A stretch of DNA of 51,889 nucleotides from NCBI GenBank assembly GCA_014804975.1, contig JAAUYT010000015.1, forward strand, positions 1 through 51,889. The letters are read 5' to 3'. Below are positions 8,956 through 47,154 of the stretch, piece by piece. Position numbers and translations under genes: made by a program. Source of the DNA: Clostridia bacterium (GTDB lineage Bacteria > Bacillota > Clostridia > Christensenellales > Borkfalkiaceae). The notes under the pieces were generated by a model. The model was not told the origin of the DNA and searched no databases. It saw nothing but the letters and a program-made list of their open reading frames with translations. The first letter of the stretch is position 1. Every line of letters starts with the position of its first letter.

Positions 8956-8983
8956 ATACGTTCCTTAATTTTTAGGTTGCCCT

Positions 8984-9101
8984 CGCTTTCTATAAACGAG
9001 CAAGACACGGAGCGCGAGGAAAACCCGAAGGAGTTTACAAAAAGGTAAATGACTAAGGGTTGCCGCAGCGGGACAAAGTATTGCGAAGTTTAGAGGAAGC
9101 G
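8984..9101. repeat. 118-bp imperfect-palindrome element, copy 1
   Basis: CGCTTTCTATAAACGAGCAAGACACGGAGCGCGAGGAAAACCCGAAGGAGTTTAC...GGTAAATGACTAAGGGTTGCCGCAGCGGGACAAAGTATTGCGAAGTTTAGAGGAAGCG; aligns end-to-end with 36305-36422 and 46116-46232. Confidence 0.95.
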
Positions 9102-9103
9102 CG

Positions 9104-11065
9104 CTATTCGCGATAGCGGCGGCGAAGCTCCGCTATCGCTTCGCGGATTTCGATCGCCTTTTCGAAATCAAGCTGTGCCGAGGCAACCTTCATAAGCGCT
9201 TTGAGCTTTTCGATTTCGTCGGGGATATCCTTCATTTTGATATCGCCCGCCTTTTTCGCCTTACCCGTAATGGAAAGCGTGGACTTGACTTCCTTGACGA
9301 TGGTTTTGGGAACGATCCCGTGTTCCTTGTTATACGCTTCCTGAATGCCTCGCCTGCGGTTGGTTTCGGAAATGGCGCGCTGCATACTGCCCGTCATTTC
9401 GTCGGCGTACATGATGACGCGTCCCTCCGCGTTACGCGCGGCACGTCCTATCGTCTGCACGAGGGAGGTTTCACTTCTGAGGAATCCCTCCTTGTCCGCG
9501 TCAAGAATCGCGACGAGGCGCACCTCGGGCAAATCGAGCCCTTCGCGCAGGAGGTTGATTCCGCACAGAACGTCGAACTCGCCCGCACGCAGTCCGTTGA
9601 TAATGTCGATACGCTCCAACGTGTCCACGTCCGAGTGCATATAACGCACCTTGATATGATTCTCTTTTAAATAGTCGGTCAAACTCTCCGCCATGCGTTT
9701 GGTGAGAGTCGTCACGAGCACCCTGCCCTTTTGTTCGATCACCGTGTGAATTTCGGAAAGGAGATCGTCGATCTGTCCCTTGGTAGGTCTTACCGTAACG
9801 GGCGGATCGAGTAGCCCCGTGGGACGAATGAGCTGTTCGACGACCTGTCCCGCCTGTTCGAGCTCGTAGGGCGCGGGCGTTGCCGAAACGCAGATGAGCT
9901 GCGGCACGCGCTCGTCGAATTCTTCAAAGGTCAAGGGGCGGTTGTCGTAAGCGGAGCGCATACGGAAGCCGTAGTCCACGAGGTTCTTTTTTCTTGCAAG
10001 GTCGCCGTGGTACATGGCGCGTATCTGCGGAATCGTCATGTGGCTTTCGTCGATAAACACGAGAAAATTATCGGGGAAATAGTCGAGAAGCGTGAACGAG
10101 GGTTCGCCTATTCCGCGCCCGTCAAAATAGCGGGAATAGTTTTCGATTCCCGAACAGTAGCCGATTTCGCGCATCATTTCAAGATCGTGTTCGGTGCGCT
10201 GGGAGAGCCGCTGCGCCTCTAAGAGCTTGCCCTCCACCTCGAACGCCTTGACTTCGCCCTGCAAGTCCTCTTCGATCACGGCAAGCGCGGAAGCGAGCCG
10301 CTCGCTTCCCACGGCGTAGTGGCTTGCGGGAAACACGACGGCGTGTTTGAGCTCGGACACGACCTTGCCCGTGACGACGTCCTCTTCGCCGATGCTCTCG
10401 ATCTCGTCGCCGAAGAATTCCACGCGAATCGCAAGCTCGGAGTTGGACGCGGGGAAAATCTCCACGACGTCCCCGCGCACGCGGAAGGTGGAACGCTTGA
10501 AGTCGGTATCGTTGCGCGAATAGTGAATTTCCACGAGACGGCGAAGAAGCTCGTCCCGCTCCATTTGCTGACCGGGGCGCATACTCACGCCGAGGCGAAA
10601 GAACTCTTCGGGCGCGCCCAAGCCGTAAATACAGGACACTGACGACACAACAATTACGTCGTCGCGCTCGCCCAAGGAACAGGTGGCGGCGTTGCGGAGC
10701 TTGTCTATCTCGTCGTTCATGGAGAGGTCTTTTTCGATATAGGTATCCGTCGAAGGAATGTAGCTTTCGGGCTGATAGTAGTCGTAGTACGAAACGAAGT
10801 ACTCGACGCGGTTTTCGGGGAAGAACTCGCGGAACTCGTTGCACAGCTGCGCCGCAAGCGTTTTGTTGTGCGCGATCACGAGCGCGGGACGCCCCACGTT
10901 CTTGATAACGTTTGCCATGGTGAACGTTTTGCCGCTCCCCGTAACGCCGACGAGCACCTGCGTGCGGATTCCGTCCAACACGCCTTCGGTCAGTTTTTTG
11001 ATTGCCTCGGGCTGATCTCCCGTCGGTTTGAAGGCTGATTTTAATTTAAAATCGAAGTGTTCCAT
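9104..11065 (-). CDS. uvrB: Excinuclease ABC subunit UvrB
   Basis: [59 protein letters not shown]; start [10 protein letters not shown]. Confidence 0.98.
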
Positions 11066-11137
11066 AACAATAAAAGATACAAACAAAAGTTTGTATCAAT
11101 CATACCATATCGCATATAAAATGTCAAATAAATTGCG

Positions 11138-36266: not shown

Positions 36267-36304
36267 ATATGTAAGTTTCCCCACAAAAGGGTGGGGACTT
36301 CATC

Positions 36305-36422
36305 CGCTTTCTATGAACGAGCAAGACAAGGAGCGCGAGGAAAACCCAAAGGAGCTTACTAAACGGTAAGTAACTGAGGGTTGCCGCAGCGCGACAAAGT
36401 ATTGCGAAGTTCAGAGGAAGCG
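36305..36422. repeat. 118-bp imperfect-palindrome element, copy 2
   Basis: CGCTTTCTATGAACGAGCAAGACAAGGAGCGCGAGGAAAACCCAAAGGAGCTTACTAAACGGTAAGTAACTGAGGGTTGCCGCAGCGCGACAAAGTATTGCGAAGTTCAGAGGAAGCG. Confidence 0.95.
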
Positions 36423-36427
36423 GAAAC

Positions 36428-36973
36428 TTACTCGAATTGGTTTGCTAAAATGTCGGCAGTAAGTCTAGCCAATTTAACCGCCGAAGCCTCCATCTCCGCG
36501 CCCTCTTCCCGCGAAAGAAGAATGACCGTGCCGAGGCAGTCGCCGTTGGCTACGACGGGCACGATGATTTCCGCAGTGTATTCGCCCTCCCCGCCGGACA
36601 CGGGGTCGTACACGACGCCCCCTTCCGCCTTGTTGGCAAGATAGCTTCTGCGCGAATTCATGATTTCCGTCACCTTTTCCGAAACGGTCTTACCCACGAG
36701 ATCGCGCTTGTTCGTGCCGTATGCGCTGAGTACCGTGTCGGTATCGGTGATTGCGGCAAGGTATCCGCTCTGTTCGTTCAGGGACTTTGCCGTCCCCTCC
36801 GAAAAACGCCCGATAGAGGCGATCGGCGAATACTTTTTGAGCATGAGCTCGTCGCGGTCAGTAAAGAGTTCCAAGGGGTCGCCCTCGCGGATACGAAGCG
36901 TGCGGCGTATCTCTTTGGGAATAACCACCCTGCCGAGCTCGTCGATCCGTCTTACGATTCCCGTTGCTTTCAT
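36428..36973 (-). CDS. spoVT: Stage V sporulation protein T (AbrB family with C-terminal GAF-like domain)
   Basis: MKATGIVRRIDELGRVVIPKEIRRTLRIREGDPLELFTDRDELMLKKYSPI. Confidence 0.92.
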   Translation of the reverse strand: MKATGIVRRIDELGRVVIPKEIRRTLRIREGDPLELFTDRDELMLKKYSPIASIGRFSEGTAKSLNEQSGYLAAITDTDTVLSAYGTNKRDLVGKTVSEKVTEIMNSRRSYLANKAEGGVVYDPVSGGEGEYTAEIIVPVVANGDCLGTVILLSREEGAEMEASAVKLARLTADILANQFE

Positions 36974-36995
36974 ATAATAAAACCTCCGTATACCG

Positions 36996-37025
36996 TCATT
37001 ATGCGGAGGCTTGGAATATTTATAC
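36996..37025 (-). promoter_or_regulatory. candidate sigmaG/sigmaF-type promoter for spoVT (GTATA-N17-CATAATGA)
   Basis: Minus strand GTATA (37021-37025), 17-nt spacer, CATAATGA (36996-37003). Confidence 0.5.
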
Positions 37026-37102
37026 ATAAATACTTTTTTATAGCCAAATTGCGGCCCCTTTTTTCACACATTTTCACGGTCACCCTGTCCCTCCTTTTGG
37101 TC

Positions 37103-46103: not shown

Positions 46104-46115
46104 AAATGCAACTCA

Positions 46116-46232
46116 CGCTTTCTATAAGCAAGCAAGACAAGGCGAACGAGGAAAACCCGACGGAGTTTACTGAGCGTAAATGACGAAGGGTTGCCGCAGT
46201 TCAACGCCGTATTGCGACGCTTAGAGAAAGCG
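46116..46232. repeat. 117-bp imperfect-palindrome element, copy 3 (most diverged)
   Basis: CGCTTTCTATAAGCAAGCAAGACAAGGCGAACGAGGAAAACCCGACGGAGTTTACTGAGCGTAAATGACGAAGGGTTGCCGCAGTTCAACGCCGTATTGCGACGCTTAGAGAAAGCG. Confidence 0.95.
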
Positions 46233-46239
46233 AAACAAT

Positions 46240-47154
46240 TTAACCGCCGAGCTCTATCATCTTATCGATACACTTCTTTGCTGCAAGCCGCAAGGGCTCG
46301 TCCAAAATAATTTCTTCGCCGCCGCCCAAAAGACAGTCGTACACGCTTTTCAGCGTCGTCAGCCGCATATCTTCACAAATAAGCTTTTTTGAGAGCGGAT
46401 AAAACTTTTTATCGGGACATTCGTATTGCAGATGCTCTACGATCGTATTCTCCGTTCCGATAATGAACTCTTTGCACGAACTCTTTTTGGCAAAGTCCAT
46501 AATGCCGCTTGTCGAGCCTATGTAGTCCGCCTTGTCCGTGACCTCTTTCAAGCATTCGGGGTGGACGAGAATGAGCGCGTTCGGGTGTTCCTCCTTTGCC
46601 CGCAGAACATCGCTGAGCCCCGTCTGCTTATGTACGGGACAGCCGCCGTCGAAAAAGTGAAAGGTCTTTTCGGGAAGGCTCTTCGCGCAGTAGCTGCCTA
46701 AGTTACAGTCGGGCACGAACAGTATTTCCTTTTCGGGAAGACGGGAAAGTACCTTCACCGCGGACGAAGACGTTACGCAAACGTCGCTCATCGCCTTGAC
46801 TCTTGCGGTGGTGTTGATATAAGCCGCCGTGACGGCGTTCGGATATTTCTTTTGAAGATCGCCTAAAAGCTCGGGCGTAAGCTCGTCCGCCATGGGACAG
46901 CCCGCGTCCTTTTCGGAAAGAATCACGCGCTTTTCGGGTGCGAGAATTTTGACCGTCTCCGCCATGAACCGCACGCCGCACATTAAAACGGTATCCTCTT
47001 TTGCGCCCTTGACCGCCGTCGCCAAACGGTAGCTGTCACCCGTGACGTCCGCGATCTCCAAAATTTCGTGCCGCTCGTAGGAGTGTGCAAGAATGAAGAC
47101 GCCCCTCTCTTTTTTCAGTCGCAGAATTTCATTCTGCAATTCCCGTACCGTCAT
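46240..47154 (-). CDS. nadA: Quinolinate synthase A
   Basis: FILAHSYERHEILEIADVTGDS, MCGVRFMAETVKIL, LSEKDAGCPMAD, FVPDCNLGSYCA, VHPECLKEV, GTENTIVEHL. Confidence 0.95.
   Translation of the reverse strand: MTVRELQNEILRLKKERGVFILAHSYERHEILEIADVTGDSYRLATAVKGAKEDTVLMCGVRFMAETVKILAPEKRVILSEKDAGCPMADELTPELLGDLQKKYPNAVTAAYINTTARVKAMSDVCVTSSSAVKVLSRLPEKEILFVPDCNLGSYCAKSLPEKTFHFFDGGCPVHKQTGLSDVLRAKEEHPNALILVHPECLKEVTDKADYIGSTSGIMDFAKKSSCKEFIIGTENTIVEHLQYECPDKKFYPLSKKLICEDMRLTTLKSVYDCLLGGGEEIILDEPLRLAAKKCIDKMIELGG

What the first reader, a model, noticed from the sequence alone, without database searches (positions are those of the whole stretch)
8984..9101. New-looking dispersed 118-bp imperfect-palindrome family (3 copies in 52 kb), copy 1
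Seen directly: 8984-9101, 36305-36422 and 46116-46232 align end-to-end (118/118/117 nt) in the same orientation, with shared blocks CGCTTTCTAT, GCAAGACA, CGAGGAAAACCC, GGGTTGCCGCAG, TATTGCGA and AGA(G/A)GAAGCG. Copies 1 and 2 are about 90% identical by eye; copy 3 is clearly more diverged but nearly the same length. No ORF explains them. I do not recognise a named Rfam class or IS end. Size, imperfect palindromy and intergenic placement recall enterobacterial ERIC (about 127 bp), but the sequence is unrelated as far as I can see.
Basis: partly seen in the sequence, partly recalled or inferred. Interest (0 to 1): 0.88.

Follow-up and report, generated by a model that had tools for sequence, protein, structure and literature searches.

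The report
Clostridial relatives of ERIC repeats
A 118-letter hairpin-forming DNA repeat, scattered through an uncultured gut clostridium just behind the stop codons of genes, turns out to be a distant relative of the classic enterobacterial ERIC repeats, so that repeat family is far wider than enterobacteria and its unknown way of moving can now be compared across phyla.

Summary
In detail: three 117-118-nt imperfect palindromes, same strand, 78-91% identical, each 2-7 nt beyond the stop codon of an oppositely oriented gene (uvrB, spoVT, nadA). The MAG (876 kb) holds about 16 copies; the family occurs in 78 of 248 sampled genomes of the order (up to 39 copies in one genus-mate), in other Clostridia and in a Deferribacterota genome (31). 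The fold is one long hairpin; 31 of 37 pairs covary over 132 copies. Rfam has no match. A covariance model made only from Serratia ERICs, run on the whole window at E<=10, returns exactly these three copies, right strand, full length; the clostridial model finds 45 matches in the Serratia genome. Shared idiosyncrasy: tandem G.A mismatches beside a fixed G.U at the apical stem. It is not ERIC sensu stricto: no TATACCC/GGGTATA ends, no target duplication, and a strict rule (antisense, abutting the stop codon) that Serratia ERICs lack but Deferribacterota copies share. Most likely a non-autonomous mobile DNA hairpin; the enzyme is unknown (Y1 transposase absent from the high-copy genomes). New branch of a known kind; mechanism unproven.

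The parts
8984..9101 (+). copy 1 (118 nt), 2 nt beyond the stop codon of uvrB (- strand), 28 nt before the start of the next gene
   Evidence: ERIC model R2 hit 8983-9102 E 0.028
36305..36422 (+). copy 2 (118 nt), 5 nt beyond the stop codon of spoVT (- strand)
   Evidence: ERIC model R2 hit 36300-36427 E 6e-5
46116..46232 (+). copy 3 (117 nt), 7 nt beyond the stop codon of nadA (- strand), convergent with a MarR-type gene that has its own terminator
   Evidence: ERIC model R2 hit 46111-46237 E 0.0063
9030..9054 (+). apical hairpin of copy 1, GGAGTTTAC-loop-GTAAATGACT: tandem G.A pairs plus fixed G.U, the part most like ERIC
   Evidence: A4 pair 57-160 is G.U in 105 of 130
36351..36375 (+). apical hairpin of copy 2, GGAGCTTAC-loop-GTAAGTAACT
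46162..46185 (+). apical hairpin of copy 3, GGAGTTTAC-loop-GTAAATGACG
8984..8991 (+). 5' outer arm CGCTTTCT of copy 1 (partner 9094-9101 AGGAAGCG); outer stem shared by most copies of this genome, different in other genomes
9094..9101 (+). 3' outer arm of copy 1
9104..11086 (-). uvrB, the gene whose 3' end copy 1 abuts
   Evidence: NCBIfam PRK05298 1042 bits; orthologues in most genus-mates are followed directly by the next gene
36428..37027 (-). spoVT-like gene whose 3' end copy 2 abuts
   Evidence: TIGR02851 194 bits, below its cut-off
46240..47154 (-). nadA, the gene whose 3' end copy 3 abuts
   Evidence: PRK09375 366 bits

Best explanation
The repeats are a clostridial branch of the ERIC superfamily of small non-autonomous mobile hairpins. 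SHOWN by computation: a multi-copy, lineage-variable family; one long hairpin with compensated stems and conserved internal loops; full-length likeness to ERIC in both search directions; placement directly behind stop codons (or behind the gene's terminator), almost always antisense to that gene; sites that are empty in related species; tandem arrays; outer stems that vary independently of nearly identical cores. INFERRED: copies spread as DNA, recognised in folded single-stranded or cruciform form by an enzyme supplied in trans that is not identified; the site behind a stop codon is the place where an insertion harms neither coding sequence nor the next ribosome-binding site, and the strand-specificity comes from the insertion step or from selection against the more stable strand in mRNA. 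The outer stem is exchanged or remade (gene conversion between copies, or fold-back copying of one arm from the other) while the core is kept. In the host it is probably a tolerated passenger that adds a hairpin to the 3' end of mRNAs, as ERIC and REP do.
For: ERIC link: ERIC-only model R2 (20 Serratia ERICs) on the whole window at E<=10 gives 3 hits, exactly the 3 copies, + strand, positions 1-131; in 405 kb of other loci, apart from the E. coli ERICs, 22 of 23 hits at E<=0.1 are family copies. Clostridial model R1 gives 45 matches in the whole Serratia genome and 31 in Seleniivibrio, and hits three E. coli ERICs. ERIC itself has the same tandem G.A and a 20/20 conserved G.U. Hairpin: 31/37 pairs changed on both sides, 95.3% paired, 0/500 shuffles. 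Placement: 3'-side gene antisense in 108/127, stop within -20..+10 nt in 63; replicated on 132 further copies, 112/122 and 68; in gaps >=100 nt 37/66 and 33/60 lie <=10 nt from the stop against 2.5 and 2.2 expected. Seleniivibrio copies obey the same rule, 22/24 antisense. Insertion: most uvrB orthologues are followed at once by the next gene, and many spoVT orthologues too. Amplification: 0 to 39 copies among genus-mates. DNA-like pairing: G.T 1.6% of standard pairs against 9.1% in tRNAs of the same genomes. Modules: L165/L166 cores 98% identical, outer stems 12%, both fully paired.
Against: The ERIC likeness is weak per copy (18-28 bits for window copies) and carried mostly by the apical third. 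No transposition event, transposase, target duplication or autonomous partner was found. The antisense rule could reflect a function rather than the insertion step. At queA the element is kept in about 20 of 40 species with its distal arm matching each species' codons, which could mean function. Copies of other Clostridia lie in rRNA operons in sense orientation.
Confidence: 0.68

Rival explanations
1. The likeness to ERIC is convergence: any long mobile hairpin with a stable G.A-flanked apical stem would score, and the clostridial family arose independently.
For: Bit scores are modest and concentrated in the apical hairpin; ends, target duplication and placement differ from ERIC.
Against: Alignments run end to end and include unpaired motifs (CGCAG..ACAA, AAGG) besides the stem; the ERIC model picks only the three copies from 52 kb; R1 finds dozens of full-length matches in Serratia.
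Confidence: 0.17
2. A cis-acting or antisense structured RNA: the + strand hairpin is transcribed and regulates or stabilises the neighbouring mRNA, and copies are kept by selection.
For: Covariation, conserved internal loops, conserved position at queA, dtd and prfB in several species; ERIC effects on mRNA stability in Yersinia are reported to depend on orientation (PMC2229807).
Against: Flanks are not conserved in the own genome, so there is no promoter of its own; presence is patchy among close relatives and neighbours are unrelated genes; G.U is nearly absent; the better-folding strand is antisense to the mRNA.
Confidence: 0.13
3. REP/BIME-type repeats moved by a RAYT (Y1) transposase.
For: REPs also lie within about 15 nt of stop codons (PMC12306157) and can supply the stop codon (PMC3733652), as some copies here may do.
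Against: Y1_Tnp absent from the own genome (77% complete) and from the high-copy genomes G009, G012, G001, G019, G020, which are 92-99% complete; 118 nt against 20-40; no GTAG or CGTC tag at the ends.
Confidence: 0.04
4. Intrinsic or bidirectional transcription terminators.
For: Stable hairpins behind stop codons.
Against: No T-run after the hairpin on either strand (>=6 T in 9 nt: 5 and 0 of 129 against 11 of 258 background positions); several copies lie next to a separate terminator.
Confidence: 0.02

Closest known systems
ERIC / IRU / RU-1 (enterobacterial repetitive intergenic consensus)
   Same: Length class (118 against 127 bp), single long imperfect hairpin, apical GGAGCTTAC..GTAAGTGACT with tandem G.A and fixed G.U, CGCAG..ACAA motif, intergenic, tens of copies; joined by reciprocal covariance searches.
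   Different: No TATACCC..GGGTATA ends, no TA target duplication, variable outer stem, tandem arrays, strict antisense stop-codon-abutting placement that Serratia ERICs lack; hosts are Clostridia, not Gammaproteobacteria.
REP / BIME sequences with RAYT transposases
   Same: Palindromic, extragenic, often within 15 nt of stop codons (PMC12306157).
   Different: Much longer, no GTAG/CGTC tag, no Y1 transposase in high-copy genomes.
Rickettsia palindromic elements (RPE)
   Same: Similar length (~150 bp per PMC10969869), long hairpin, mobiliser unknown.
   Different: RPEs insert in frame within genes; here 0 of 132 and 1 of 132 copies lie in genes.
YPAL / RU-2 of Yersinia
   Same: Hairpin MITE-like element without TA ends (PMC2229807).
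   Different: 168 bp with target duplications of 3-26 bp; sequence relation not tested here.

Membership tests
ERIC (sensu stricto) | match to an ERIC sequence-structure model, full length | tested here: met
   R2 on window: 3 hits = 3 copies, 1-131; distant, 18-28 bits
ERIC (sensu stricto) | about 127-bp imperfect palindrome, intergenic, multi-copy | tested here: met
   118 nt, about 16 copies, none in genes
ERIC (sensu stricto) | terminal TATACCC..GGGTATA with 5'TA3' ends | tested here: not met
   ends are CGCTTTC..GAAGCG here and others elsewhere; Serratia ERICs have them
ERIC (sensu stricto) | target site duplication on insertion | tested here: not met
   flank direct repeats near shuffled levels; the excess at k>=4 includes tandem arrays
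ERIC (sensu stricto) | confined to Gammaproteobacteria (as described in the literature) | tested here: not met
   78/248 genomes of this order, other Clostridia, Seleniivibrio
REP/RAYT | 20-40 bp with GTAG or CGTC tag at one end | tested here: not met
   118 nt; ends carry neither; definition from PMC3733652
REP/RAYT | Y1 (RAYT) transposase in carrier genomes | tested here: not met
   absent in own genome and in G009, G012, G001, G019, G020
MITE of a DDE insertion sequence | autonomous partner with the same terminal repeats, target duplication | tested here: inconclusive
   no duplication; no systematic search for DDE partners was made
Rfam structured RNA | match above gathering score to any of 4227 families | tested here: not met
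Retroelement-borne hairpin (retron-like) | reverse transcriptase in carriers | tested here: not met
   RVT_1 in G000, G009, G019 but not in G012 (39 copies), G001, G017, G018, G020

The most novel reading that the evidence does not exclude
ERIC is one enterobacterial twig of a phylum-spanning superfamily of mobile hairpins (Clostridia, Deferribacterota, Gammaproteobacteria and perhaps others) that spread by an undescribed strand-specific process acting at gene 3' ends, in which the outer stem is remade at each site (fold-back copying or arm exchange) while the core is conserved.
Probability: 0.3. Interest if true: 0.85.

Novelty: new variant of a known kind. Interest (0 to 1): 0.62.

Why it matters
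ERIC sequences have been known since about 1990 and are used for typing, yet how they move is unknown and they are described from Gammaproteobacteria. Relatives in Clostridia and Deferribacterota, with site rules as strict as 'antisense, at the stop codon' and copy numbers that change between species, give the comparative material to look for the mobiliser and to separate insertion preference from selection.

Tried and rejected
Rfam at gathering and permissive thresholds: nothing relevant. Y1 transposase and reverse transcriptase as mobiliser: do not track copy number. Terminator and target-duplication tests: negative. Phage and plasmid collections: no match; viral contigs two pattern hits, one matched by R1 weakly over 28 nt. 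The idea that queA copies insert with their own gene tail: displaced tails in four genomes are better explained by recombination with a repeat array. The idea that outer arms are always copied from the target: weakened by L166 and L171, which share outer arms but not cores, so exchange between copies is as likely. Direct comparison of ERIC primer sequences with the window: best matches at the copies still have 7 substitutions, which is why the ERIC relation is missed by eye.

Full report
Observation. No ORF accounts for them. Each lies 2, 5 and 7 nt beyond the stop codon of a minus-strand gene: uvrB, a spoVT-like gene and nadA. The genome (876 kb in 57 contigs, 77% complete) holds 16-17 matches to a model built from its copies. 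One contig of this MAG corresponds by length to SVIJ01000010.1, 'Clostridiales bacterium isolate SIG406' (inference).

Structure. Each copy folds end to end into one rod with short internal loops, far better than shuffles, and better on the + strand (z -6.7 to -8.2) than on the - strand. In 13 copies of the genome 19 of 37 pairs have compensated double changes. Over 132 copies from the genus and relatives 31 of 37 pairs do, 95.3% of cells pair, and no shuffle or slid register approaches this (the alignment was fitted to the model, but the slid controls fall to about 30-40%). Variable stems stay Watson-Crick: G.T is 1.6% of standard pairs against 9.1% in acceptor and T stems of tRNAs from the same loci. 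This fits pairing as DNA, or arms copied from one another, better than slow RNA evolution through G.U. One exception is a fixed G.U beside tandem G.A mismatches at the apical stem (105 of 130 copies).

Distribution. Among 36 genus-mates 30 carry at least one copy, up to 39; in the order 78 of 248 genomes and 33 of 115 genera; in the class sample 14 genomes outside the order. In some genomes copies form tandem arrays. In G478 and G416 copies recur identically just upstream of 23S rRNA, in G402 between 23S and 5S, in G556 just before 16S, in rRNA sense (the 16S case and G416 read by eye).

Placement. With a home-made gene caller, 108 of 127 copies have the gene on their 3' side pointing towards them; in 63 the stop codon lies between 20 nt inside and 10 nt outside the element's 3' end. 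The mirror case (stop next to the 5' end of a sense copy) occurs once in 24. A second set of 132 copies from contigs found by a DNA pattern gives 112 of 122, 68, and 0 of 19. In intergenic gaps of at least 100 nt, 37 of 66 and 33 of 60 copies lie within 10 nt of the stop against 2.5 and 2.2 expected. About 20 copies lie 31-60 nt off; those read by eye have a terminator between stop and element. Counts include arrays and shared loci, so they are not independent events, and gene calls rest on a coding score alone.

Insertion and turnover. In most genus-mates uvrB is followed within a few dozen nt by the next gene, and G018 has its own, different array behind uvrB; spoVT is often followed by short gaps too. 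At queA about 20 of 40 species carry an element overlapping the stop codon, while G000 and G019 have queA and tgt joined directly. There the distal arm matches each species' own codons. In G031, G010, G002 and G015 a second copy of the queA tail lies behind the element, which recombination with an array explains. In several genomes (G001, G018, G017, G019) near-identical cores sit in unrelated, fully paired outer stems; own arms pair at 88-95%, arms of different copies at about 45%. The clearest pair, L165 and L166, has cores 98% and outer stems 12% identical; L166 and L171 share outer arms but not cores. Cores and outer stems therefore have separate histories.

Relation to ERIC. The pattern scan brought in a Serratia locus whose flank is an ERIC end. 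R1 finds 45 matches in that whole genome at E<=0.1 and 31 in Seleniivibrio, a Deferribacterota genome. The Serratia matches align as ERICs with TATACCC..GGGTATA ends; E. coli loci found from them by BLAST carry the two ERIC primer sequences (remembered by me) with 0-3 substitutions and are hit by R1. A model of Serratia ERICs alone, folded independently, has the same apical stem, tandem G.A and G.U in 20 of 20. Run on the window with E<=10 it returns three matches and no other: the three copies, + strand, full length, E 6e-5, 0.006 and 0.028. Caveats: the Serratia ERICs were chosen among R1 hits, calibration is short, and most score comes from the apical third.

Is it ERIC? By likeness it belongs to the same superfamily; by ends, target duplication, hosts and placement it is not ERIC sensu stricto. 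Serratia ERICs show no orientation rule (9 antisense, 13 sense on the 3' side), whereas Seleniivibrio copies obey the clostridial rule (22 of 24).

Mechanism. Shown: hairpin, spread, site rule, modular exchange. Not shown: movement, enzyme, transcription. Y1 transposase and reverse transcriptase do not track copy number; the hairpin is not an intrinsic terminator and makes no target duplication. I think a trans-mobilised DNA hairpin, tolerated behind stop codons, is most likely, with orientation set by the insertion step or by selection on mRNA structure.

Literature. No paper in the searched open library describes these elements or ERIC relatives outside Gammaproteobacteria; subscription papers were not searchable, so prior description cannot be excluded.

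Noticed in passing
L371-L379, L384, L386 (G478, G416, G402, G556): Family members sit inside rRNA operons of other Clostridia: 4 nt before 23S rRNA, between 23S and 5S, and before 16S, in rRNA sense. They would be part of the precursor rRNA.
   Followed up: partly
L324, L327, L332, L351 (queA-tgt loci): queA 3' end is a hotspot: element overlaps the stop codon, and a displaced second queA tail (GDACLFL* or similar) follows the element and a shared spacer TCCTGCCTCCCGTAAGG.
   Followed up: partly
L025 (G027, behind dtd): The copy behind dtd is inverted relative to the same-locus copies of G001 and G035, with a remnant of the old end CAAGGAAGATT left before it, as if the hairpin had flipped in place.
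   Followed up: no
L085, L086, L090-L092, L094 (behind spoVT), L125 (behind uvrB): A different long inverted-repeat element, starting GTTCAC or GTTTCG or similar directly behind the stop codon, occupies the same kind of site in other genus-mates.
   Followed up: no
L403-L422 (Seleniivibrio MAG): About 30 copies of the family in a Deferribacterota genome, 118-120 nt, with the same antisense stop-codon placement; horizontal transfer, MAG contamination or deep ancestry not resolved.
   Followed up: partly
L206 and second hit in G564 (Staphylococcus petrasii), L200 (Alistipes), L234 (bacterium Co_bin.297): Single or double weak full-length matches to the clostridial model in other phyla (E 8e-6 to 0.006 per genome).
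   Followed up: no
L153, L154, L155 (G012), L053 (G000): Longer members (166-171 nt) with extra sequence inside the hairpin, possibly a second hairpin inserted into it.
   Followed up: no
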